A stretch of DNA of 64,000 bases, taken from contig JASFAU010000015.1 of the NCBI GenBank assembly GCA_039704465.1, positions 248,001 to 312,000 of the forward strand, given 5' to 3'. This DNA is from Plasmodiophora brassicae. Its lineage: Eukaryota; Endomyxa; Phytomyxea; Plasmodiophorida; Plasmodiophoridae. Shown piece after piece: positions 1 through 56,032 of the stretch (the stretch's first letter is position 1; every line of letters begins with the position of its first letter). The translations under genes and the position numbers were made by a program. The notes below the pieces were generated by a model. It saw only the letters and a list, made by a program, of their open reading frames with translations, searched no databases and was not told the origin of the DNA.

Positions 1-3000
1 GCCTTGCTGTTGAATAATAATGGAGTGTCGATGCAGCGATAGCATGGAACACGCTACCGTGCGCGTTATTCCAACGTATGTTTCGGCAGGACCTGCTGGT
101 CGCAAGCCTGTTTCGAAATTACTTGTTGGCCGAACGCATAATGCGCTCTCTTCGATGTACGCCCGTCTCACTTCCACCCCTGCCGTCAACATGTTTGCAT
201 CCGATGTGGAATGCATGGGATTTCGCAGCGGAAGCCGCTCTCGCCCAGCTTGAAAAGTACGTTGCAGATCCGGATAACGTCACATTCCAAGTAAGTGGCG
301 AGGTCCAGATTGAAGTTCGAGGGTCTCATTGCAGTTTAGCCTAGCTCCTTCTTTACAGAGCAGTTAACGGCTTTCGAAGTTTGGCTCGAGTTTGGCAGCG
401 AGTCAAAGCGCCCGATGGAGCTTCCCGTTGTCCTACAGGTCCCATGGGATTGCACATTGCACGACCTGTTACGATGTCTCACACCATTGCCTACAGGTAC
501 TGTTGAGCCAGGCGCACAGGTTGAGGGCACTGCAACTGCTCGCCACGTTTATCGATCTCGGGCCTTGGGCAGTCAATTTGGTATTGTGCAGCTGTAACTT
601 GGGATGACCCAAATTGTATTCATTGTAAGCGAATAATAGGCGCTGTCCGTTGGTATATTCCCGTACGTCTTGAAGCTGCTGCAGAGCCCAACTACAGAGC
701 TTCGTCACGTTTTGATCTTCATCTGGACCAAGATCATCGCTTTTGATCAGGTTTGGCACGAGGCGACCTATCTATCATGCGAATACCTGAACGCGTTTCC
801 ATAGTCCTGTCAGAGGGAACTGGTCAAGGATCAGTATCATTTGTACTTCTTGAAACATATTTCCCCGACGTCGTCTCCTGTTTTCCTGCAGCGGCTGATG
901 TCCCTGTTTGTCGTCTCGGGAATCTGCGACAGGTTTAGCCAGGGCCAACACGCAATCCTAACTGCTGGCGGGCTCGGCGCCCTTGCCGGATGTATGACGG
1001 ACACCACTCCCCTGACAAGGGTTCTTGTCCTGGTGTGCTGTGCTAAGCTTTGGGAGCGTTATGAACCTGCACGCGAGGCTGCCCTTCGACAGCTGGTTAC
1101 CCCACATTCTCCACTCAACGTGGTCGATTACGTTGTATCAATTGCCCAGCAAGATGGTGTTCCCCAAGTTCGTGCAGCCGCCGCCTATGCCTTGGGCACC
1201 TTCATCGTCGCATCCACCGAAACCAACGCGTCGACCCGAGCACCAGCCGAAGGCAATAAGGTTCGTAGTCGTTAGACGGTCGCCGTCTTGCTGTTGATTC
1301 GTGGGTCTAGACGGCTCTGTTGCACCTTGGCATTGTCCGGCGACTCTGCACGTTGGCGACTGACGGGTCTGGCCTGGTTCGTGCGGAGCTCGTGCACACC
1401 ATTCAGGCACTAATCGGCGGCCAGCGGGTCCGTCACATCTGGGTTCACTCTGCTGGGCACCTCTGACCACGTTTCCAGGAGGCGTTTGCTGATATTGCCG
1501 CCATGATTCCATATGCAGATATGACTCGGCCGTTTCCTGATGAGAACGTTTCGTCAAACGTTCTCAACGGTATATTGTTGCCCCATTTTCATATTTCAAG
1601 CTCCTCTCATTGTTGTGCCAGAGAGTCGCGTGTTCATATGGAAAATCGTCCTGATGCTGTGCCGGGATCCATTGCCGCGAGTCGCCCAAATCGCTCTTAC
1701 GTTGCACAAACTGTTGTGCCCGTACCGCCTTGTTCGTTCAGCATCGGGGCAAGTCAGTTTGTCGTTCATCTTTAATGCTGTAAACGGATTGCGTATGATA
1801 TGATGTTAGGCCATTAACGCGTCGGCTGCACATGACGCTCCCGAGCACGGCGCCTCCATTCCCCGCATCAAGTCTGATTCGTCGTTCCTGCATATGCATG
1901 AGCCTGCAAGCACGACTATCGAGCACAGGTCTACGTTTTACGACTTTACCTGTGACCTGTTCTCTCGGGGATCGGAAGGCGGCCTGGGGCCGTCGTTCGA
2001 CGATGAGCGATGGATCGAGAGACAAGAACAGCCGCCGGATGCCGACCAGCAGATCATGATTCAAGAGGCGCGGTATCAGAAGGCGAATCAAACCGACCAG
2101 GAGGCATTACACCGGAATTACGAAGATATAGCTGAACGACGGTTGTCCGGGGAGGTGGGGACTTTGCATTCGCTCGCCAGTTCTAGCTCACTAACCGAAG
2201 CTAGTTGGCTCTGTTGACGTCGCCTTTCGAGCAAACCACGAAGCTGATCATGCACCCGTATGAGCCATTGGTCGTCAGTGCCGATCCGACCAGGCTAGCC
2301 GTATTCAACTACGAGACGTCGCAACTCCTCACCACGATTACAAACGGCAACACGCGAGGATCCGCCATCACATCTCTGCAGTGGCTTAATCCGAAGCACG
2401 TGTCTCTGGTCGCTGTTGGAAGCGACGACGGCGTCGTACGCGTGTGGAGAAACTGCCACGACGCTGCTGGCAAGGTCGCCATCATAAGCGCCTGGACTGC
2501 GGTCCCAGGCATGAAGCGCGGCGCGATCCCCGGGCTGGTTCTCGACTGGCAACAGCAGCAAATGCGGTTACTTTGTGCAGGGAATTCCAACGTCATCAAG
2601 GTACCGGTACGCCCTGCTGCTTGCGGAACACGTGCTTAGAGATAGCCGTGCAGGTTTGGGACACGAGCCGGGAGTTCCTGACTGCCGACATGGTTGTATC
2701 GGACACGAAGACATTGGCCATCACGAGCATTTGCGCGGACAACGACCTGGTGTTCACTGGCGGCTCAGACAACCGGGTCAGAATGTGCGACCTACGCGCG
2801 CCGTCATCGCCGGTGCGTTTCAGACATGCCCCTGCCCTGCTCTATCGCGCGTTCTTCTGACTTTGCGAAGGCCCAGGAACTGTGCACGCATGACGGTTGG
2901 GTTGTATCGGTACGGGCACAACAGCACACGATTGCGCCAATGCTTGTCTCCGCTTCCGTGCGAGGCGACGTCCGCGTCTGCGACCTTCGGAAGCCAACGG

Positions 3001-3439
3001 AACCGGTGTCGATCTTCCAGGTGAGCCATCGCCCTCGGCGACCGATTCACGCGCCGAATGAGGAACCCGTCGCAGGCGCACCATTCCGGGTCGAAGTCGG
3101 AGCCGCTGAACACGTTCGCCATCAGCGACGTCGCGCCGCTCTATGCTGCCGGCTCCGTGAAACAGTTCGTCAACGTAGGTCGACGCGTTACCCGCGCATG
3201 CCCGCCTGGCGTGTGCTGATAACGGGGCCTGCCATCAGATCGGGACCCTGTCGGGGACGCCCATGAACGCGCTGCGGTACCAGGACGGGTTCCTCGGGCA
3301 GCGCATCGGCCCGGTCAACTGCGTCGCGTTCCACCCGCGCGCCCTGCTCCTCGCCGTCGGCTGCGGCGACCGCACCATCTCCATCGTCAACGACCGCGAC
3401 GACGACCACCACAACCACCCCGTCATCGTCCAGCGATAA
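1..3439 (+). CDS. RPTOR: Raptor (regulatory-associated protein of TOR), 3' part
   Basis: Scaffold and substrate-recruiting subunit of TOR complex 1. The first coding block (about 24-290) carries the conserved stretch around [20 protein letters not shown], followed after introns at about 291-349 and 471-498 by [20 protein letters not shown] and [13 protein letters not shown]-type blocks continue to about 1720, including [12 protein letters not shown] near 1170. The C-terminal WD40 propeller starts near 2205 ([26 protein letters not shown]) and ends with [20 protein letters not shown] before a TAA at 3437-3439. The order and motifs match animal and fungal Raptor C-terminal halves. The N-terminal caspase-like RNC domain lies left of the window. 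About ten short introns interrupt it, so exact exon joins in 1260-2210 are less certain. It is followed by a Ras gene on the same strand. Confidence 0.93.
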
Positions 3440-44698: not shown

Positions 44699-45443
44699 TC
44701 ATTGTTTGAAGTTGATGCTGTACGATCCTGTATTCGGATCCTTGGTCGCCTGGAAGTTGTCCAGACTCATGCCGAATTTCCCTAGCAACGAGTTGCCCAT
44801 CTCCTTCAGCTTGCCTGCAGCAGTCGTCAGCGTACGATGGCTGTTGAACAGCTGCGGGCACATACTCATCATCTCGTCTTTCTGCGCCTCCTGGTACGCG
44901 GCGTTGTCCCGCTCCAGACGCGCCAACTCGTTCCTGTAGTGTTTCGATTCGGGAGACAGCTCCACGAGCTTCTTCGCGTCTGCAGTCATGTGTTATATAG
45001 CTCCCCAGATGAGCGCTCATCACAGGACCCGACCTTCAACTGCATCGTTGTACTTCTTTAACGCTTCCGCTGCTTTCGCACGCCTGACGAGCGCTTTCTC
45101 GTATGATGGATTCAGCTCGAGTGCAGTGGTGCAATGGGACACGACCTAGCAGGCAATGAGATCGATCGCATGCTGGACTCGGATTTAAGCCATATGACCT
45201 TCTCGTGCTCATTCAGTGACAGATAGCATGCGCCCATGTTGCAATGCAGGACGGCGAGCAGCGCCTTCTCTTCGTCACCCTCGGCGTCTCCCACTGTCGC
45301 ATACTGTCAGCTCCCGACCCTCCCACGGCGGAAACGCAATGATCCGTACCCGCGGCGACCGCCTCCTGGTACTTGCCGACCGCGCCTGCCATGTCGCCAT
45401 CGCTGAACAGCCGATTGCCTTCGTCCTTGAGCGTGGTCGCCAT
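44699..45443 (-). CDS. TTC1: TTC1-like tetratricopeptide protein
   Basis: Three-TPR adaptor protein that in animals binds Hsp70/Hsp90 and G proteins. ATG 45443 starts TPR1, MATTLKDEGNRLFSDGDMAG. After an intron comes KALLAVLHCNMGACYLSLNE, then TALELNPSYEKALVRRAKA and EALKKYNDAVE. The final exon (44989 downward) is KKLVELSPESKHYRNELARL, with the diagnostic end GKLKEMGNSLLGKFGMSLDN FQ region and SYSINFKQ. Introns are short and several; limits in 45000-45240 are approximate. Length about 200 residues is compact compared with human TTC1 because the acidic N-terminus is missing. Confidence 0.87.
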
Positions 45444-45722
45444 TGGCGATACGAGGGCCGCGGGCTGCGCACAATTGGCCGCTAAGAATATTCCCATCGG
45501 CGGTAGCCGGTAGGCCAAGACGGCATTGTGCCCAGTTCAACAGAAACCTGACTGCCAGCAAAACGGCGCGACTCCAACCGCTGTCCGGCCACGAGCGTGG
45601 AACAGGCCCCGTTGCGGAGAGCGTCTCCAACGCAGCGAAAACAAACGCTAATACACTCTGGGCAAACCGACAGAGGTTCGGTTGGGAACTCAGAAGCCGG
45701 CCCGAAGCAAGCAAAGGGCGCC

Positions 45723-46339
45723 ATGACGACTAGAGATGTTTATCGCCGGCATCGGGATGACAAGCGCCACGCCGGCAGATGCCGGGGCCTCGTTTCGAAG
45801 TTATTCCGAGCGGTTCCGCGGGGCGCGCTGCGCAATTTGCCGCTGACCGGCCCCGACGGCGCCAAGCCAGCCATGTCGTTGGCGCTGGACGACCTCGATG
45901 CGGAGATCCAGGTGATGCAGGCCGAGAAGGTCGAACGGCAGCAGCAGCAGGTCTGCGAGGCCATGGACCAGGTCGGCAGGGCAAATCGGCCCCCGATTCG
46001 TCGCCCGCGCGCCGTCACTGACGCTGCCAGTGCAGGTCCGGCTCGGCCGCGATCCGTTCGGCTGCCTCCCCATGCAGTCGCAGTCCAGCCTGGAGCTTCA
46101 TTCGGCAATCGTCGAGCACTATTCGTATGGTGCTTGCTACGCTCGCCGATCGGCTCCCGCATCTGACTGCACCCATTAGGAATCGGCACCAGATCGGGAA
46201 AGAGATTTCATCCGTTTCGCGGCGGCAGGCCCGTCGCCAGCGGAAAGCGAAGGCCAAGGGTGCCGACTACGCCGATAGGAATACGTCCAGCATCGCGTGC
46301 AAACTCTCGAAGCGTAAGCGGAGGCAGCAGTCGAAATGA
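45723..46339 (+). CDS. Unrecognised basic, Gln- and Arg-rich protein
   Basis: ATG 45723 (MTTRDVYRRHRDDKRH). Splicing at a GTCGGC donor after MDQ (about 45972) to the acceptor near 46035, and from EHYS to NRHQIG near 46118-46171, gives one continuous frame ending KRKRRQQSK at 46337-46339. A central coiled-coil-like segment is LDDLDAEIQVMQAEKVERQQ. The C-terminus is very basic (SRRQARRQRKAKAKG, then KLSKRKRRQQ), as in nucleolar or ribosome-assembly proteins. I recognise no family. The retrotransposon lies just downstream. Confidence 0.6.
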
Positions 46340-46584
46340 AGCGCTCGTTGAAGTTCCCATGGGACATTATTGCGTTGCACTGGCCGCACTCTGTGGCTGC
46401 CGAGCCCGCTTGCCGATCTTACGGCCGTCGACGTCCTTTGTTGGCGGGTCCTGTAGCTCAGACATCGATCCCACCCGTGATCCCAGCCCGGTTCCCGCTT
46501 CTGGTTTGATGGTCCAGAACGTGGACTTACGATCGGAGCTCGCTGGTGTTCGGCAGCCGTTAACGGGGACGCCTGTTGGCCGGG
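46340..46584. other. Interval downstream of the old DUF2235 stop
   Basis: Convergent 3' sequence between the basic-protein gene (plus) and the former end of the DUF2235 gene (minus). A minus-strand frame encoding STFWTIKPEAGTGLG and a Lys/Arg-rich end runs through it but has no start of its own that I trust. Confidence 0.4.
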
Positions 46585-46615
46585 TCAGGAGCGCTGTTCC
46601 CCCACAGCATATCCA
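46585..46615 (-). pseudogene. Detached 3' end of the DUF2235 coding region
   Basis: Before insertion, the minus-strand frame of the DUF2235 gene would have crossed TGGAT (46611-46615, also 51741-51745) and continued nine codons here to TGA at 46585-46587. The element now separates this tail from the gene. Confidence 0.8.
46611..46615. repeat. Target-site duplication, left copy
   Basis: ATCCA directly abuts the LTR and matches 51741-51745. Confidence 0.93.
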
Positions 46616-46795
46616 TGATTCAAGCAGTTCGAAGCGCTTAGGAAAGTGAAAGTCCCCAGTGTATCTAACGTGGGGGAAGCCGACGTCCCCATGACGTCGC
46701 ACACACAGTGGCACGGTCGCCACTGTGCACCAGTTGCGTCACGTCGTCGTGACTCATGGGTCGGCCACTGTCGCTAGCCTTCCCATTATGAATCA
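46616..46795 (-). repeat. LTR (3' LTR in element orientation)
   Basis: 180 bp, beginning TGATTCA and ending TGAATCA, so the ends are 7-bp inverted repeats with the TG...CA signature. By eye it is identical to 51561-51740. Confidence 0.96.
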
Positions 46796-46801
46796 GCCGC
46801 C

Positions 46802-49800
46802 CTAAGGCGCCAGCGACAGGTCCACCCGACCCATCCCGGCCGCCCTCTTCATGACCTCCACAGGTTCACGAGTGGTCGGCTTGGTGAGCGCGTCCGCCGG
46901 ATTGTTCTTTGACGCCACGCGCTCGAACCGGAGCAGTCCCTCCTGGACGCACTCTCGCACATAGTGCCATTTCACCCGAATGTGCTTGTTCCGGTCCGTG
47001 ACCCCGAGCGTCTTCACCATCTGCTCGGCAGCCGTGTTGTCCTCCAGCACAATCGACGGGTCCGTCAGAGTGAACCCGATGTCGGTGAGGAGCATCCGGA
47101 CCCACACTACTTCACGCGCCAGCTCGCTGGCCGCCACGTACTCCGCGTGCGCTGAGGAGGTCGCCACCAGGCTTTGCTGCTTCGATCGCCAGCTCACAGC
47201 TGCGTCCATCAGCGTGACGATGAATCCCGTGACCGACTTGGATGTGTCCGGTCCATCCATCGCAAAGTCCGAGTCGACCGCCGCCCGGGGCTCCGACTCC
47301 TTCACGTTGTCTTTGTTCAGTGCCATCGGGTCGAATTCAGTCGCCGGTGTCTTGCTCTTCGCGTAGATGATGCCGACATCCGTGTTGTTCTGGACATATC
47401 GCAGCACGTGGAGCATCGCCTCGAAATGCTCCCGACCCGGGTTGTTCAGGTGACGCGACAGCTGCGACACCGCGTGCGTGATTGTCGGCATCGTGCCGAT
47501 CGACAGATGCGCCAGGCAACCAACGCCCTCGCGGTACCGCTCATGCTGGTGCGGAACACCGTCGGTTCGCCGGGGCATAATCTGCCCGACAGGCAGAGCC
47601 GTGGCCGGCGCGCGCAAGCGGCGCCCGGCGGCTGCCTCGTCGATGTCGGTCTGGAACCGCGCGACCACCTCCTTGGCGTACTGCTGTTGGTCGATCGTGA
47701 TGCGCGTTGCCTCCTGCTTGATGCGCATCCCCAGGATCCATCTCGCGATGCCAGGTCCTTCATCTTGAACTTCTTGCCCAACGCTGCCTTGACGTACTCG
47801 ATGACGTCGGGATCCGTGCCAAACATCATAAAGTCGTCCACGAACACCCCGAGGATCGTGATCTGTCTGCGGCCGTCCTTCGTCGTGAACATAACGAACA
47901 GGCACGGGTCGCCGGTCACCCTTGTGAAGCCGATTTCGAACAGAACTGATACGAGCTTATCGTACCAGAGCTTCGGCGCCTCGACCAGGCCGTACAGCGC
48001 CTTCAGGAGCTTCATCACCTTGCCGCGTCCTCCGACCACGAAGTTCTTCGGCTGTTCACAGTAGATCGGGTACGGCAGGTCTCCATTCAGGAACGCCGTC
48101 TTAACGTCCAGCTGGTGGATGACCACGCCCAGCATGGCCGCCAGCGCCACCATGATGCGCAACGTCGCATACCGGAGCGTCGGCGAGTACGTCTCCTTCT
48201 GGCCCTTGAACTTGTCGCAGCATCCCTTGACGCAGAAGCGGGCCTTGTGGCGCGTGATCCCCCCGTCCTCGTCGCGCTTCGTCGTGTGCACGAACATTGT
48301 TGGCAGCACTTGAGCGTCGGTCGGGCGGTCCACGATCTCATACGTGCCCGCTTCCTTCAGCGACTGCATCTCCTCGACCTGCGCCGCCAGGTACTTGTCC
48401 CGGTCAGGCCCGTTCTCGGCCTCGTACTCAGTGAGGAACGCGTTGCCAGCGTCCTCCTCCTCCAGGTAGCTGTCCTCGTTCTCGAGCGCCTCGTCCTGGT
48501 TGACCTGGTCCTCGTTGTCCGGGTCGTCGTTGGCCTCGTTGTCGTGGTCGACAGCATCTGCTGCTGCCGCCTGGTCGACGTTGTCGGCAGCCCCTGCTGC
48601 CGCCCTGGCGCTGGCCGCCCTCTGGCGCCGCGCTTCGCCGTCGTAGTCCACGTCGGCAAACCGAGCGGGCGCTCCTCTGATGCGCGTCGACCGCCTCGGT
48701 TCAGGGACGCCTTGAGCAGCAGGTCCTCGATCCCCGCCGCCCTGAGCTGCTTGCTCATCGCGTCCGTCATGCCGGTCTTCACCGGCACCTGCGAGTTCCC
48801 TGGCACGGTCGTCCCCGCCGCCGCCTCGCTGAATGGCGCGGCCATCCTGGCCGCCGCCCTGTTGTTGACCGACGCGACCTTCTCGATCGCCGTCGTCTTG
48901 TCGTGCGACGCGATCGTCCCGACCGCCGTCGTCTTCTTGCCCATGACGATCGTCTTGACCGCCATCGCCGCCTCCTTGCAGCTGGGCTTGCGCCGTCTCT
49001 TGGCGCTTGCGGGTCTCCTCTCCGCGGGAGCCGCTGTCATCCTTGAACGGGAATTCGTTGGGGAAGAAGACCACGTCCGAAGACTCGATCATCTTGCGGC
49101 TGTGCCACAGCAGCAGCCGGTACGCCTTCTTGTCGATGCACACCCCCATGTGGACCGCGCGCTCGGCCCTGGCGTCCAGCTTGCACTTCTTTTGCCGCCG
49201 GATCCTGACCCACGCCTCGCAACCGAATGGCATCGCCCTCGACAGGTCTGCTTGTTGTTCCCCGTCAGTTCCTCGATTGGCGTCGTCCGGTGGCCGTGTC
49301 GTTGGAGCGGCACGCGGTTGGCTACCCACGTCTGATGCCGCCCGTTCTCGGTCCAGTACTTGCGCGGGACGCCTGACTGGACACGAGCTGCGCGCATCAT
49401 CTTGACAATCTTGCCACCGAACGTCTCCGCGAGACCGTTCTGGTGCGGGCGGTCCGTGTCGCTGAACTCCTGTGCGATTCCCCGCTCGCGCAGCAGCAGC
49501 CGCCAGGCGCGTCGAGGTGAACTCGCCGCCCTGGTCGGCGCGGAACGTGTCGACGCGTGTGCCGCCCATGACCTCGAGCCGGGTCAGCACGTCCATGACG
49601 ACTTGCTCCTGGTCACCCTTATTTGCCAGGTTGACCGTGGCACCGACACCAGTCGCGTGGTCAACGTAGCACGCCATGTACGTCTTTCCGTCATGCGACC
49701 TGGTGTCGAACGTCTGCAGGTCCGCCCCGACGATCTGCAGCTTCGAGAGCACCGTCGTGTCCGTCTCCGCGGGATCGCCGTTCGGTTGAGGTTGGCCTCG

Positions 49801-51539
49801 ATGCACACCTTGCACCTGGGCACCTCGTCGCTCGCCAGGTCGGCCTCGTCGATGTTGAGACCGGTGATTGCCCCGTTCTTGACTGCCTTTCTGATCGTGA
49901 TCGTGGACAGGTGGCCGCACCTCGCGTGCGCCTCCGCCAATGATATCGTTCTGTCGCGCTTTACGTCCGCGGGCTTGCGCGTTTCCTTCTTCTCGGCCGG
50001 CTCCTCCTTGCTCGGGCTCTTGTTTTCTGGCTGGTTTGGATGATCGTGATCGGGGCGGCCAGCGCCACCCCCGCTACTCGAAATCCTGGACCTTGTGCAG
50101 ATCCAGGTAGTACAGGCCCTTGCGGACCGTACTGGTCACGATCGTCCTTCCGGCCCCGTCCAGGAGCCGGGCTGAGCGCGTCTGCTCATGGTGCTCCGCG
50201 CCCGTCTTGCCGTCCTTGCCGAGCTGCAGGAGTGCCGAACGCACCGCGAAGATGTCGCGGATGCATCTGGCGCGTACGCGACGTTTGTCAGCGTGATCGA
50301 CTTGCCGTTAGCCAGCTTGAGGCGGACGTTGCCCCTGGCATGGACCTTGATTCGCTGCGGGCCGATGCCGCCGATCGTCGGCCGGTCCTTGTCGGCGATG
50401 AAGTCCAGCTCCTCGAAGTGCGCCTTGTGGGTGGACACGTGGCCGCACGTCGCCGCGTTGTCGACGATGAAGTCGCGGATGCCCTTCCGCGGCGCGTCCT
50501 CGACGCCCGCCAGGCTCGTCAGGAGCGCGATCGACGCCGAACCGCCTTCCTCTTTGCCCCCCTTCCGCTTGCCGTTCCTGGCCTTGCCGCGCTCGGCGTT
50601 GCCGGTCTTCTTGCGGCTACGGCAGTCGGCCGCCCTGTGTCCAGCCTTTCCACAGTTGAAGCACTTGCCGGAGAACCCCGTCGTCGTCATGGCCGCCGAG
50701 GAGCCGCTGTCGTCGTCGCCGCGCTCTATCGCTCCCCGCTTGTACTGAGCGAGCCTTCTGCGCGGACCTTGCTTTGCGTCAGCTCTCCGATGGGACCGCG
50801 CAGCATCGCGTTGACTAAGTCCTTGTACTCGGTGTATGGCAGCGAGATAAGGACCTTCGTCGCCATGTCCGACTCAGTCTTCGTCCGATTCGGATCCGCC
50901 CGGGCCAGGTTGATGCCCAGGTCGCGCATCGCCGTCAGGTGCGCCTTGGTCTCCGTGAGGTCGGCGCCCGCCTTAAGCTTTGTTGTTGACAGAAGAATGT
51001 CGAACATCGCCAGGTCCGTGCCCGTTTGGCCGGAATACTCCGTCTGGATGGCGCTCCACGCCAGGTCCGGACGGTCGTCGGGTATGTCGAGTATCAAGGG
51101 AAGTTCGTCTTCATGCACGTTCTTCTTGATAGCGTACATTGCGTGGAGCCTCTCTTGCTCCGACGCCGGCTCTTCGTTGTGCCCGCGCGTCGCGGGCTCC
51201 ACGGCCTTTTGCAGGCCCGACTTCTTGAGCATCGTCGTCATCGACGACGCCCAGAAGGTAATTGTCCTTGCCCTTCAGCTGGACGGAGATCTTGATGCCG
51301 GACTCCTTCAGGCCCGTCAGCCTTTCCTTCTGCGCAGCTTCCAGCCGCGCCAGACGATCCTTGAGCGCCGCGTTCTCGCGCTGGCCGGTCCCGCTCCCGG
51401 CCGCCGCTGCTTGCAGACGTTCAACCTCCGCCTCCAGCCGATCCTGCTGCCGCTGGGCCTCGGACAGCGCAGCGCTTATCTGGGCGATCACGGCCTCTGC
51501 TTGGGCCAGGTCGGCTGGGATGCTTGGGATCGTCGCCAT
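46802..51539 (-). pseudogene. Copia gag-pol, frameshifted
   Basis: ATG 51539 (MATIPSIPADLAQ) opens a coiled-coil gag. CCHC knuckle CFNCGKAGHRAADC is near 50650. A protease-like DNAATCGHVS follows near 50460. Integrase has the HHCC start (HARCGHLSTITIRK, CKVC) near 49920 and GADLQTF...DQGGEFTS core Asp residues. Reverse transcriptase shows AFLNGDLPYPIY, KLWYDKLV and the catalytic FVDDFMMFG near 47830. RNase H shows AVDSDFAMD, TSSAHAEYVAASE and LEDNTAAEQMV, ending at 46802. I count at least eight switches of frame along this path (near 51255, 50755, 50262, 50090, 49790, 49510, 49240 and 47755), so no full-length product can be made from this copy as written. Confidence 0.9.
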
Positions 51540-51540
51540 C

Positions 51541-51560
51541 AGAGAGTGGGACTCTTAATC
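51541..51560 (-). other. Primer-binding site, tRNA-Lys(CUU) half-molecule type
   Basis: Immediately inside the 5' LTR, the plus strand reads GAGTGGGACTCTTAATC (51544-51560), which equals the anticodon arm of a tRNA-Lys with anticodon CUU: stem GA, loop CTCTTAA, then TC. The element strand is its complement. This resembles the half-tRNA priming known for Drosophila copia (initiator tRNA-Met cut near position 39). Confidence 0.7.
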
Positions 51561-51740
51561 TGATTCAAGCAGTTCGAAGCGCTTAGGAAAGTGAAAGTCC
51601 CCAGTGTATCTAACGTGGGGGAAGCCGACGTCCCCATGACGTCGCACACACAGTGGCACGGTCGCCACTGTGCACCAGTTGCGTCACGTCGTCGTGACTC
51701 ATGGGTCGGCCACTGTCGCTAGCCTTCCCATTATGAATCA
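51561..51740 (-). repeat. LTR (5' LTR in element orientation)
   Basis: 180 bp, identical by eye to 46616-46795. It provides the last codons and stop (51610) of the interrupted DUF2235 gene. Confidence 0.96.
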
Positions 51741-53347
51741 ATCCACACTCTGTCACACCGGAACAGGCGTGCCGGGTCGCGGGTATCGCCGTGGAGAGAT
51801 CGATGCGCCGGTCGGATGCCCACTTCACCAGGTTCGCGGGCCTGTACGTTGGATCGGTTTGCCACCGCTTGAATACCGAAACGTCGATTGTCTCGTTGAC
51901 GTTCTCGACATCGGGCGTTCCGGCTTCGCCTATCGCCCTGAAGTTCGGGGCACCGATAACCGGGACATACTGTCGAAGCGGGCGTCAGCAACAACACGCC
52001 GTGCGTACATCCCGCGTCGAACCTGGTAGATGCCAAACAGAGCCGATGACCGGGAATCGACAACCCTAACTGCTGTCAGCATGGCTCACCAAGCGGGGCA
52101 AAGCCAGGTCGGCTCACGGTGAGACGATGCATTCATCAACCACGATGGGCTCCGCCTGACGGAATGCAAGTCCCGCACGCTCAGCACCTTCCATGATCCA
52201 CACCATTGATATCTGAACCAGGCCACAGACGATCAACATGCAATACGACTGCAATAACGTGCTGGCCAGCACCTGCTGGAGCGCGTCGTTGGGATATCCA
52301 CCACCGACGTTGCTGTGCGAACCACTGAACCACCGTTGCTCAATCCGATCCGCGAAACAGTGAGCGGATGGGGAGCGGGGCAGGTCTGGATCATGAATGC
52401 GTTCGCATTCACCCTTCGCGACGATCCACAGCGCTGCTCAGAATCAGACCTTGGGCAGCGCGATGCACAATCGTCACCTACTTGGACGGAACGACTGCCT
52501 GAACTCGTCGAGGGCAAGCGCGTGCCGTGCACTCAGCACATTGGCGCACATGCCTACCCGCCTGAACGCAAGCGTCGAGCTGCTTACATTCCTAAAGCTG
52601 CCCAAGGGGATCCCCGACGGGGCCACCTGTATGACCCGGTCAGTTGCCAATCGCGAGCGTACGACGCACGACCGAACGTTGTCGAACAGGCCAATGTAGG
52701 TGATGGTGACCGTCTTGCTGTACTTGCGCAGGCAGTACTCGGCAAAGTTGTCCCTGATCGTATAGCGCTCTGGTGGCGCTTCGTCGATGACCCGTTTTGT
52801 AGCGTGCGAAATCGGGTTGCTCGGGTCGTTCGACTGGCGATACCGCTGGTACAACTGGTCCACCGTCAGTGGCGACGTGCCCGACAACAGGCCGCATTCG
52901 TCCAGCATGCCAGCCAGACAGTTGGCCGAGTACGCTCCACGACTGAACCCGAACAGGAACAGCTCATCACCGTCCTACAAACCAACATGGTTCGCAGGCG
53001 AAAACGGTGCCAGGACGTCATCGGCCGACCTGGTAACTCTCCATCAGCCAGGAATACGCCTCTTTGATCTGGACGTCGACTCCGACAGGAACGACGCCAC
53101 CGACAACCCGCTCGATGAACCCGACACCGCCCTCATAGTACACGACCTGTTCGACGCCGCTGAACCCGACGGGCGCAACCAGGGCCTTCATTCGCTTCAC
53201 TATGCAGGACGGGATGCGTCACGCCCCAGATAATCGTTCGGGCACAGGCGCAACCGCACCGTTCGTGCAGGCGTCCGGCAGGAGGTCCCAGGTGCCGTCC
53301 AGGAACATGGCCAGGCGGCGCGACGATGTCGACTCGGGCGACACCAT
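51610..53347 (-). CDS. DUF2235 alpha/beta hydrolase, 3' end replaced by LTR
   Basis: Predicted hydrolase of the DUF2235 family, which includes bacterial Tle1-type phospholipases. ATG 53347 gives MVSPESTSSRRLAMFLDGTW with the family opening FLDGTW. Splicing adds VEQVVYYEGGVGF, then DELFLFGFSRGAYSANCLAG with the GxSxG nucleophile. CANVLSARHALALDEFRQSF and QRWFSGSHSNVGGGYPNDAL (His and Asp region) complete the core. The C-terminal block DPTYRPANLVKWASDRRIDL leads to VTECG, where the Copia insertion begins. The present frame continues into the LTR for about 43 codons to a stop at 51610 instead of nine native codons. Several short introns; limits near 52070-52450 are approximate. Confidence 0.85.
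51741..51745. repeat. Target-site duplication, right copy
   Basis: ATCCA, same as 46611-46615. Confidence 0.93.
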
Positions 53348-53844: not shown

Positions 53845-56032
53845 TTACCCTGCATCCGCTCTCCGGTCACCAAAGTCGCTGATCATCTGTTTGAGTAGCT
53901 CAATACGGATCGGTTTCGTCAGGTAGTTGTTCATGCCGGCCTCCAGACAGCGCTCCCTGTCGCCCTTAATGGCACTGGCCGTCAGTGCGATAATCGGCAG
54001 CGTCTTCCGGTGCGGTATCGCACGAATGGCTCTGGTCGCTTCGTACCCATCCATGACCGGCATCTGGCAGTCCATGAGGACCAGGTCGAACCGTTCCGTA
54101 CCCTGCAGCAGGGCGACAGCCTGCATCCCCTCGTTGGCGATCTCCACGTTGTGCCCGAGCTTCTCCAAGACGCGCTGCAGGATGGCACGGTTGACGGCGT
54201 TGTCCTCCACAACTAGAATGTGTAGCGGAGACCCGGCAGGCTGCCAGACGTCATCCGATTGTCGAGCCTGCTCGACACCACCACTCAAGGGTTCACGCTG
54301 TGAGACGGCCGAAGGTCTTCCGGGGTTCGCGCACATGAACGCCAACGTGATCACGAAGGTCGTTCCTTTACCCTCCTCGGACTGGACCGAAATCGACCCG
54401 CCCAGCATGTGGACCAGTTTCTGGCAGATCGCCAGGCCTAGCCCGCTGCCACCGTACCGCCTCGTTGTGCTCAGGTCGGCTTGATGGAAGTCGGAAAAGA
54501 GCTCATTCATGGCGTCCTGGGACATACCGATCCCGGTGTCGGCGACGGTCAAGCGGACAGTGACAACGAGTGGAGGATCGACCGTTCTGCTGCTCGGCGG
54601 CGGCAGCAACGCGTTCACAGCCTCAACAGGATCCACGATGTCCAGCAGAAGAGCAATGGAACCCTCATCGCCAGTGAACTTGACCGCGTTGTCAAGAATG
54701 TTGACCAGGACCTGACGGACCTTGACCTCGTCAGATTTGACGATAATGGGACTCGTTGGGCACGAAGCGTGGAACGCGATGCCACGATCGGCGGCGCGGC
54801 GAGAGAACAGGGCGTGCATTCTCCGGGCCAGCTCGCACAGGTCGAACTCGACGAATTCGACTTCGGCCTTGCCGGCCTCGATCTTGGAAAAGTCGAGGAT
54901 GTTGTTCACGATACCCAGAAGCATTTGCGACGAGTCCTGCATCATGCCCACGTACAGGCGCTGTTCTTCAGATAGGTCGGTGGACGATAGCAGATCCACG
55001 GTCGAAACTAGCGCCAGGTTAACAGATGCAATCATGACGATGATACGAAACGCTGAACGTACTGATGCCGCTCATTGGCGTTCGAATCTCGTGGCTCATG
55101 TTGGCCAGGAAGATGGATTTCAGGCGCGACGCCTCCAGCGCGACCTGGCTGGACTTGATCAGGTTCTCCATCTTGATTCTATCGGACATATCGATGATGG
55201 ACACCAAGAGAAGCCTATCGTCGTCTTTGTCGGCGTCGACCATATTTAAACCGATCACAATCGCAAGCTCCGTCCCGTCCTTCCTCAAGCCGTACACGGT
55301 GCGTTCCGGTCCCTTGCTCGCCGTGGTTGCCATCGCCTGTTGCATAACGAGTGTCGTCTGTGCCAGGGACCGTCCAGATATGACGACGCTGAAGTTTTTG
55401 CCGACCAATTCAGTTCGCGTGAACTGGAACAGTGCTTCCGTCTTCGAGTTCACCAGCACGATTCGCATGGCGGCGTCTACCAACATCATGGCCGTCGGAG
55501 ACGCCTCGACAGCGGTCTTAAACATTCGCTCAGCGCGCTTGCATTCGGTGATGTCGACTATAATGGCGGCGACGAAGACGTCATCCTGGACCTTCATCGG
55601 GCTGAGGCTGATGTCCAGCGGGACCTCGCGGCCGTCTTTTCTGACGCCGTACAGGTTGTGTCCGGCTCCAATTGGCAAATATCGAGGCTTCTTCATGAAC
55701 TCAGCCACCCCCTGGGCGTGACACTCGGCACAGCGTTTGGGTACGAGCATGCCGACGTTAGAGCCGATCAGCTCGTCACGTTCGTACTGGAACAGTTCCT
55801 CGGCTTTGCTGTTGACTAGAACGATCTCGCCGGTCGTGTCGACGATCACCATAGCGTTCGAAGACGCATCGAACACCTGCCCGATCGCCAAACACACCGA
55901 CAGGTACCGCTTGAGCTTGCCCGTCTGGATGAGGCGTTCTCGTTCCGCAGCGTTTGCGGGCGACTGGAACCGAGCCCGCTGCTTCGGCGTCAAGTACAAG
56001 CTGATCTTGGGGAATGCCATCGAACGCGACAT
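53845..56032 (-). CDS. Hybrid histidine kinase 1 (PAS-PAS-HisKA-HATPase-REC)
   Basis: Soluble phosphorelay sensor. Exons 55063-56032 and 53845-55007 give 710 residues. Two PAS domains follow an N-terminal SLYLTPKQRARFQ segment: SSNAMVIVDTTGEIVLVNSK and ASPTAMMLVDAAMRIVLVNS. The H-box is FLANMSHEIRTPMSG with the phospho-His; the single 55-bp intron falls right after it. ATPase boxes are NILDNAVKFTGDEG (N), VADTGIGMS (G1) and YGGSGLGLAI (G2). The receiver has VVEDNAVNR, phospho-Asp in DLVLMDCQMPVMDG and LTKP. There is no membrane segment, so the signal is probably cytosolic. First of three tandem paralogues. The phosphotransfer partner is not in the window. Confidence 0.95.

What the first reader, a model, noticed from the sequence alone, without database searches (positions are those of the whole stretch)
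46585..53347. Copia insertion swaps the C-terminus of a DUF2235 hydrolase for LTR-encoded residues
The minus-strand frame of the hydrolase reads ...VTECG, then enters the LTR and stays open for about 43 codons to 51610. Removing the element and one TSD copy restores a frame that runs nine codons to a stop at 46585-46587. The insertion thus leaves the whole catalytic domain intact and changes only the tail and the transcript's 3' end. This is a natural chimera whose polyadenylation may now come from the LTR.
Basis: seen in the sequence. Interest (0 to 1): 0.75.

Follow-up and report, generated by a model that had tools for sequence, protein, structure and literature searches.

The report
Copia element inside a hydrolase intron
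A very young Copia retrotransposon sits in a short intron near the end of a hydrolase gene of the clubroot parasite, so the gene's true tail is most likely a separate exon beyond the element and not the nine-codon stub that was first proposed.

Summary
The sequence facts hold. A 5,125-bp Copia element (46616-51740, minus strand, LTRs 180/180 identical, duplication ATCCA) lies in a minus-strand DUF2235 (PF09994) gene. The gene's frame enters the LTR and stays open to 51610. Read straight through, the empty site would stop at 46585-46587. The inferred natural tail does not hold. The gene is spliced: seven GT-AG introns of 48-60 nt lie upstream, and the empty site contains an eighth of 56 nt (GTGTGA...CTGAC...CCAACAG), with the element 18 nt into it. 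The C-terminus is most likely exon 9 (46572-46367, 68 residues): its junction TRHACSGVP matches paralogues (TRSARTGIP, TRLASTGLP, TRRASNGLP, TRSARTGVA), and 2 of 2,187 open YAG sites of the window, itself included, score that well. The genome is Plasmodiophora brassicae, probably strain e3. At least eight full copies carry identical LTRs, so the insertion is recent. It is a new example of a known kind: an intronic, sense-oriented Copia insertion, as at Arabidopsis RPP7.

The parts
51759..53347 (-). DUF2235 (PF09994) hydrolase, exons 1-8: 53347-53260, 53199-53030, 52974-52678, 52626-52482, 52433-52273, 52212-52118, 52065-52023, 51969-51759
   Evidence: Seven GT-AG introns of 60, 55, 51, 48, 60, 52 and 53 nt give one open frame of 1,210 nt; PF09994 at 124.4 and 28.3 bits in the genome search, 95.8 and 29.1 bits on pieces; the spliced frame follows paralogues P0001 and P0002
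46573..51758 (-). Intron 8 as it now stands, 5,186 nt; 56 nt in the empty site (51758-51741 plus 46610-46573)
   Evidence: Donor GTGTGA, acceptor CCAACAG, CTGAC 12 nt from the 3' end
46367..46572 (-). Exon 9: 68-residue C-terminal tail and stop TAA (46369-46367)
   Evidence: Best coding score of the six frames of this stretch; junction SG|VP fits paralogues
46616..51740 (-). Copia LTR retrotransposon, 5,125 bp, same strand as the gene
   Evidence: RVT_2, SH3_retrovirus, Pol_BBD and zinc knuckle above Pfam cut-off; rve, gag_pre-integrs and Retrotran_gag_2 below cut-off
51561..51740 (-). 5' LTR (element orientation); gene frame open for 42 codons in it
46616..46795 (-). 3' LTR
51741..51745 (.). 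Target-site duplication ATCCA, copy 1 (inside intron 8)
46611..46615 (.). Target-site duplication ATCCA, copy 2 (inside intron 8)
51547..51560 (-). Putative primer-binding site next to the 5' LTR, complementary to the anticodon arm of tRNA-Lys(CTT)
   Evidence: The 14-nt pattern occurs 22 times in the genome; of 8 loci away from these elements that were scanned, 3 carry tRNA-Lys(ctt) genes over the match

Best explanation
A recently mobile Copia element inserted, in the sense direction, 18 nt inside a 56-nt intron (intron 8) of a nine-exon DUF2235 hydrolase gene of Plasmodiophora brassicae. The intron's donor, branch-like motif and acceptor, and the last exon, all survive. Shown from sequence: the insertion, the duplication, the open upstream exons and the open exon 9. 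Inferred: that the 56-nt stretch is an intron (about 0.85) and what the transcript does. The likeliest outcome (about 0.6, inference) is that splicing over 5.2 kb is poor in a species whose introns average 60 bp. Most transcripts would then read into the 5' LTR and end there or in the element, giving a protein with the whole conserved domain and a 49-residue tail (7 up to the LTR border, 42 from the LTR) in place of the natural tail. A minority would be spliced normally.
For: Intron model: seven upstream introns of 48-60 nt; two of them (5 and 7) coincide exactly with introns of the P0001 gene and two more (1 and 3) lie at about the same place (exon map read by eye); species mean 60 bp and 4 introns per gene (PMC4471660, passages). 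Candidate intron 56 nt with YAG acceptor and CTGAC 12 nt from its end (a YTRAY motif at such a distance is in 8 of 13 known introns); acceptor score 5.7, within the range 0.27-6.49 of those 13. Junction: paralogues read TRSARTGIP, TRSARTGVA, TRLASTGLP, TRRASNGLP and the spliced product TRHACSGVP; anchored score 70, reached by 2 of 2,187 open YAG sites of the window including itself, against 39 for the straight-through tail and 35 for the LTR tail. The acceptor was chosen among seven AG sites within 140 nt, so by chance about 0.006 of such choices would do as well. Exon 9 sense frame +0.01 per codon, its five other frames -0.31 to -0.47, LTR frame -0.23. Conserved fold ends before the junction: in the model of paralogue P0001 the last helix of the domain ends at 404 and pLDDT is below 50 at 425-437, the junction lying at 421.
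Against: The donor GTGTGA scores 0.88, below all 13 known donors (1.94-6.09). None of four paralogues has an intron at this position (the L002 gene has none at all). An unanchored comparison of exon 9 with the four tails is not significant (572 of 5,000 shuffles reach the sum), and against one tail (C18B) the LTR frame does better than exon 9 by that measure (177 against 345 of 5,000). The anchored shuffle test is clear for P0001 (4 of 1,000) but marginal for P0002 (50 of 1,000). Exon 9's coding score is ordinary: 34% of open 68-codon segments in the window score as high. Intron-like GT...YAG stretches with a branch-like motif cover 254 of 4,000 random positions. The seven upstream introns were set by eye to fit the family, not by transcripts. 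No transcript was seen. None of 10 poly(A)-like words tested is in the LTR, which does not favour termination there.
Confidence: 0.85

Rival explanations
1. One reading: the natural gene ends nine codons beyond the insertion site, and the LTR replaces this short tail with 42 codons.
For: The frame arithmetic is right. The consensus of 35 relatives ends shortly after the YRPxNLVxWA motif, so a short tail would be tolerable. The donor of the proposed intron is weak.
Against: The nine codons lie inside an intron-like stretch of the usual size with branch-like motif and acceptor. The straight-through tail fits the paralogues less well (7, 11, 11, 10 against 14, 14, 26, 16). All four paralogues continue for at least 47 residues beyond the conserved G.
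Confidence: 0.1
2. Splicing is efficient: the element is removed as a 5,186-nt intron and the protein is unchanged, so the insertion is nearly neutral. (A variant of the intron reading, not exclusive of it.)
For: Donor, branch-like motif, acceptor and exon 9 are intact; no stop or frameshift is seen in exons 1-9; no poly(A)-like word of 10 tested in the LTR.
Against: The intron would be some 86 times the species mean of 60 bp; a sense element brings its own promoter and 3' end (inference); the insertion is too young for decay to be expected.
Confidence: 0.35
3. The locus is a pseudogene or an assembly fault.
For: Plain frames are interrupted, and no near-identical annotated protein was listed in two searches.
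Against: The interruptions are resolved by seven GT-AG introns that fit paralogues, leaving one frame. GFSRG, LFDNV and GSHSNVGGGY segments are present. Element borders, TSD and LTRs are clean. The two searches see only proteins of about 0.55-1.75 times the query length.
Confidence: 0.05

Closest known systems
COPIA-R7 in intron 1 of Arabidopsis RPP7 (passages of PMC7529245)
   Same: Copia element inside an intron of a host gene; 5' LTR can end the host transcript; downstream exons depend on suppression of that ending or on splicing
   Different: There the short transcript is shown, non-coding and dependent on EDM2 and H3K9me2; here nothing is shown at RNA level and the short product would be coding, with all of the conserved domain
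COPIA4 at Arabidopsis RPP4 (passages of PMC7529245)
   Same: 3' UTR overlaps the 5' LTR, which supplies poly(A) sites at the gene's 3' end
   Different: Shown there by 3' RACE; only proposed here
DUF2235 / T6SS_Tle1-like_cat family PF09994
   Same: Gene over curated cut-off; GFSRG, D and H-NVGGGY segments present
   Different: Spliced eukaryotic gene with a rapidly changing C-terminal tail beyond the domain

Membership tests
Ty1/Copia LTR retrotransposon | Pol with Copia-type reverse transcriptase (RVT_2) | tested here: met
   RVT_2 155.8 bits against cut-off 31.6
Ty1/Copia LTR retrotransposon | Integrase upstream of reverse transcriptase | tested here: met
   rve segment (20.2 bits, below its cut-off of 32.6) and SH3_retrovirus (65.3 bits) precede RVT_2 in the same frame
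Ty1/Copia LTR retrotransposon | LTR pair with TG...CA ends and 5-bp TSD | tested here: met
Ty1/Copia LTR retrotransposon | Primer-binding site complementary to a tRNA | tested here: met
   14-nt match to the anticodon arm of tRNA-Lys(CTT), 3 of 8 scanned loci; half-tRNA priming as in Drosophila copia is recalled
DUF2235 / PF09994 hydrolase | Pfam model over curated cut-off | tested here: met
DUF2235 / PF09994 hydrolase | Ser-Asp-His segments GFSRG, LFDNV and GSHSNVGGGY | tested here: met
   Present in the spliced frame; S125 and H290 invariant and the D column nearly invariant in an alignment of 35 of 120 listed relatives; the catalytic role is recalled
LTR-terminated host transcript (RPP7/COPIA-R7 kind) | Host transcript polyadenylated in the 5' LTR | not testable with these tools
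   No RNA data; no poly(A)-like word of 10 tested in the LTR
Intronic Copia insertion | Insertion point between a functional donor and acceptor | tested here: inconclusive
   Good sequence case with a weak donor; no transcript

The most novel reading that the evidence does not exclude
The element has turned the short intron into a two-way switch: one hydrolase transcript ends in the LTR and carries 42 LTR-encoded residues, the other splices over 5.2 kb and keeps the natural tail, and the ratio is set by the parasite's silencing of the element.
Probability: 0.1. Interest if true: 0.5.

Novelty: new member of a known kind. Interest (0 to 1): 0.27.

Why it matters
It corrects the reconstructed end of the gene and shows that, in genes with introns near 50 nt, an insertion can look like a protein-tail swap when it is in fact intronic. 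It also gives a clean locus to test how a genome of tiny introns copes with a sudden 5-kb intron: splice, truncate or both. The eight near-identical copies point to recent Copia activity in a genome described as low in repeats (5.4%, PMC4471660, passages).

Tried and rejected
Rejected: nine-codon natural tail. Rejected: pseudogene, because the broken frames fit introns. Not supported: a family preference for introns; by eye on the three longest frames of each flank, one other copy (C1:61 kb) sits in a long open frame, antisense, and two (C19:317 kb, C15:690 kb) lie beside retroelement-like frames. Doubted: reading the frame breaks of the element as decay; the copies differ pairwise by 0-9 substitutions but, leaving out the copy with an internal duplication, by 5-20 gap openings, more like uncorrected long-read indels (inference).

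Led nowhere: no orthologue or other-strain version of the gene in two protein searches (one search lists 120 of 4,219 hits, one search lists 120 of 159); unanchored tail comparison not significant; no solved structure matched P0001 meaningfully (best E 0.14); no paper of the library held both Plasmodiophora brassicae and DUF2235 (0 papers); a search for at least 3 of the terms Plasmodiophora, Ty1, retrotransposon insertion and intron listed, among the first 6 of 135, none about this parasite's own elements (listing only).

Rows dropped: of the P0001 introns, a 37-nt annotated gap and the gap at residue 198-199 were left out of the 13-intron set. The alignment used 35 of the 120 listed proteins.
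Full report
What the sequence holds. The window is C15:248001-312000 of a genome of 25.34 Mb in 21 contigs. The two best protein relatives are named Plasmodiophora brassicae, and a gene of this genome (L002) matches one of them, P0002, nearly letter for letter. The contig number fits the long-read assembly of strain e3, 20 nuclear contigs and one mitochondrial, given there as 25.1 Mbp (PMC6823432, passages). The species is well supported, the strain inferred.

The element. LTRs at 46616-46795 and 51561-51740 are identical over 180 nt, with ATCCA on both outer sides. Frames on the minus strand carry Pol_BBD, zinc knuckle, SH3_retrovirus and RVT_2 above Pfam cut-offs and Retrotran_gag_2, gag_pre-integrs and rve below them. 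The 14 nt next to the 5' LTR are complementary to the anticodon arm of tRNA-Lys(CTT) genes of this genome (22 places of the pattern; tRNA-Lys(ctt) over the match in 3 of 8 scanned loci). Sixteen identical LTR matches form eight full copies, each with a 5-bp duplication. Five further matches at 88-90% were listed, two of them short fragments. The search scores only the best candidates, so eight is a lower bound. Internal parts of the eight copies differ pairwise by 0-9 substitutions. The insertion is recent.

The gene. The minus-strand gene starts at ATG 53347 and needs seven GT-AG introns of 60, 55, 51, 48, 60, 52 and 53 nt to give a single frame. They were set by eye to fit the family. The frame follows an intronless paralogue on C20 and P0001 on C2. 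By eye, introns 5 and 7 lie exactly where the P0001 gene has introns, and introns 1 and 3 at about the same place. PF09994 is matched over its cut-off.

From 51759 the frame reads GVTECGLIHNG...RRLPPR and stops at 51612-51610. The straight-through empty site reads GVTECGYAVGEQRS and stops at 46587-46585. Both are arithmetically right.

Why the nine codons are probably not the natural tail. Exon 8 is followed by GTGTGA at 51758. In the empty site an acceptor CCAACAG ends at 46573, which gives an intron of 56 nt with CTGAC 12 nt from its end. Introns of this gene are 48-60 nt, and the species mean is 60 bp with 4 introns per gene (PMC4471660, passages). The acceptor scores within the range of 13 known introns; the donor scores below all 13, in a set with weak donor consensus; a branch-like motif is in 8 of the 13. 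The frame after the acceptor is open for 68 codons to TAA at 46369-46367 and has the best coding score of the six frames there, though 34% of open 68-codon segments of the window score as high.

Paralogue test. Four paralogues in the same genome share the stretch before the junction and continue as TRSARTGIPMIGNRRNSLHRGTSW (P0001), TRSARTGVAVMLYRNRMSLERGPEW (P0002), CTRLASTGLPKTP... and CTRRASNGLPRTA... (two tandem genes on C18). The spliced window gene reads TRHACSGVPVNGCRTPASSDRKSTFW. Anchored at the G, the spliced tail scores 14, 14, 26 and 16, the straight-through tail 7, 11, 11 and 10, the LTR tail 7, 7, 11 and 10. Among 2,187 YAG sites of the window followed by 20 open codons, 2 reach the spliced tail's sum, itself included; since the acceptor was chosen among seven AG sites, the chance figure is nearer 0.006 than 0.001. 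Against shuffles of the tail, 4 of 1,000 (P0001) and 50 of 1,000 (P0002) reach it. Without anchoring the comparison is not significant (572 of 5,000 for the sum; against the C18B tail the LTR frame does better, 177 against 345 of 5,000). Tails differ greatly even between paralogues (the four distant pairs score 16-21). No paralogue of the four has an intron at this place.

What it does. In the model of P0001 (mean pLDDT 60, pTM 0.57) the last helix of the conserved part ends at 404; pLDDT is below 50 at 425-437 and from 464 on, with one better-scored helix at 443-464 between; the junction lies at 421. Loss or exchange of the tail would therefore leave the conserved domain. Whether it is lost depends on RNA that no tool here holds. 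A sense element with a donor upstream and an acceptor downstream allows splicing of a 5,186-nt intron, termination in the element, or both. I put 0.6 on mainly premature ending, from intron size alone; the lack of any of ten poly(A)-like words in the LTR is against it, and this species' signal is not known to me. Two protein searches listed no near-identical annotated protein, which might reflect repeat masking before gene prediction (PMC4471660) but is not evidence of non-expression.

Compared with what is known. COPIA-R7 in RPP7 intron 1 and COPIA4 at RPP4 are shown cases of host transcripts ending in a Copia 5' LTR (PMC7529245, passages). The present case has the anatomy of RPP7, near the 3' end of the gene rather than the 5' end. 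It is a new member of that kind at most, with the transcript step untested.

Verdict. Observation confirmed; interpretation corrected: most likely an intronic insertion with the natural tail in exon 9; the chimera is possible but not shown.

Noticed in passing
L025/L024 (C1:61744-66869): Another of the eight copies lies in a long open frame that runs antisense to the element on both sides, i.e. it appears to interrupt an exon of a TPR-like gene (by eye).
   Followed up: partly
46616-51740 and L062-L068: Copies differ by few substitutions (0-9 per pair) but by many small gaps that break reading frames differently in each copy; probably uncorrected long-read indels in repeats.
   Followed up: partly
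L064 (C15:690547-695907): One copy has an internal part 226 bp longer than the window copy's; a stretch matching about 2823-3051 of the latter is present twice.
   Followed up: no
L061 (C18:317500-323500): Two tandem DUF2235 genes with alike C-termini (KPSYWASILRK / KPSFWATILRK).
   Followed up: partly
53848-55035: Hybrid histidine kinase (HisKA, HATPase_c, Response_reg) on the same strand upstream of the hydrolase.
   Followed up: no
45213-46300: A TPR-like start on the minus strand near 45440 and a possible plus-strand gene around 45720-46166 lie downstream of exon 9 (by eye).
   Followed up: no
L028-L030 (C15:71840-72292): A diverged (88%) LTR with two short fragments beside it, one of them inverted.
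   Followed up: no
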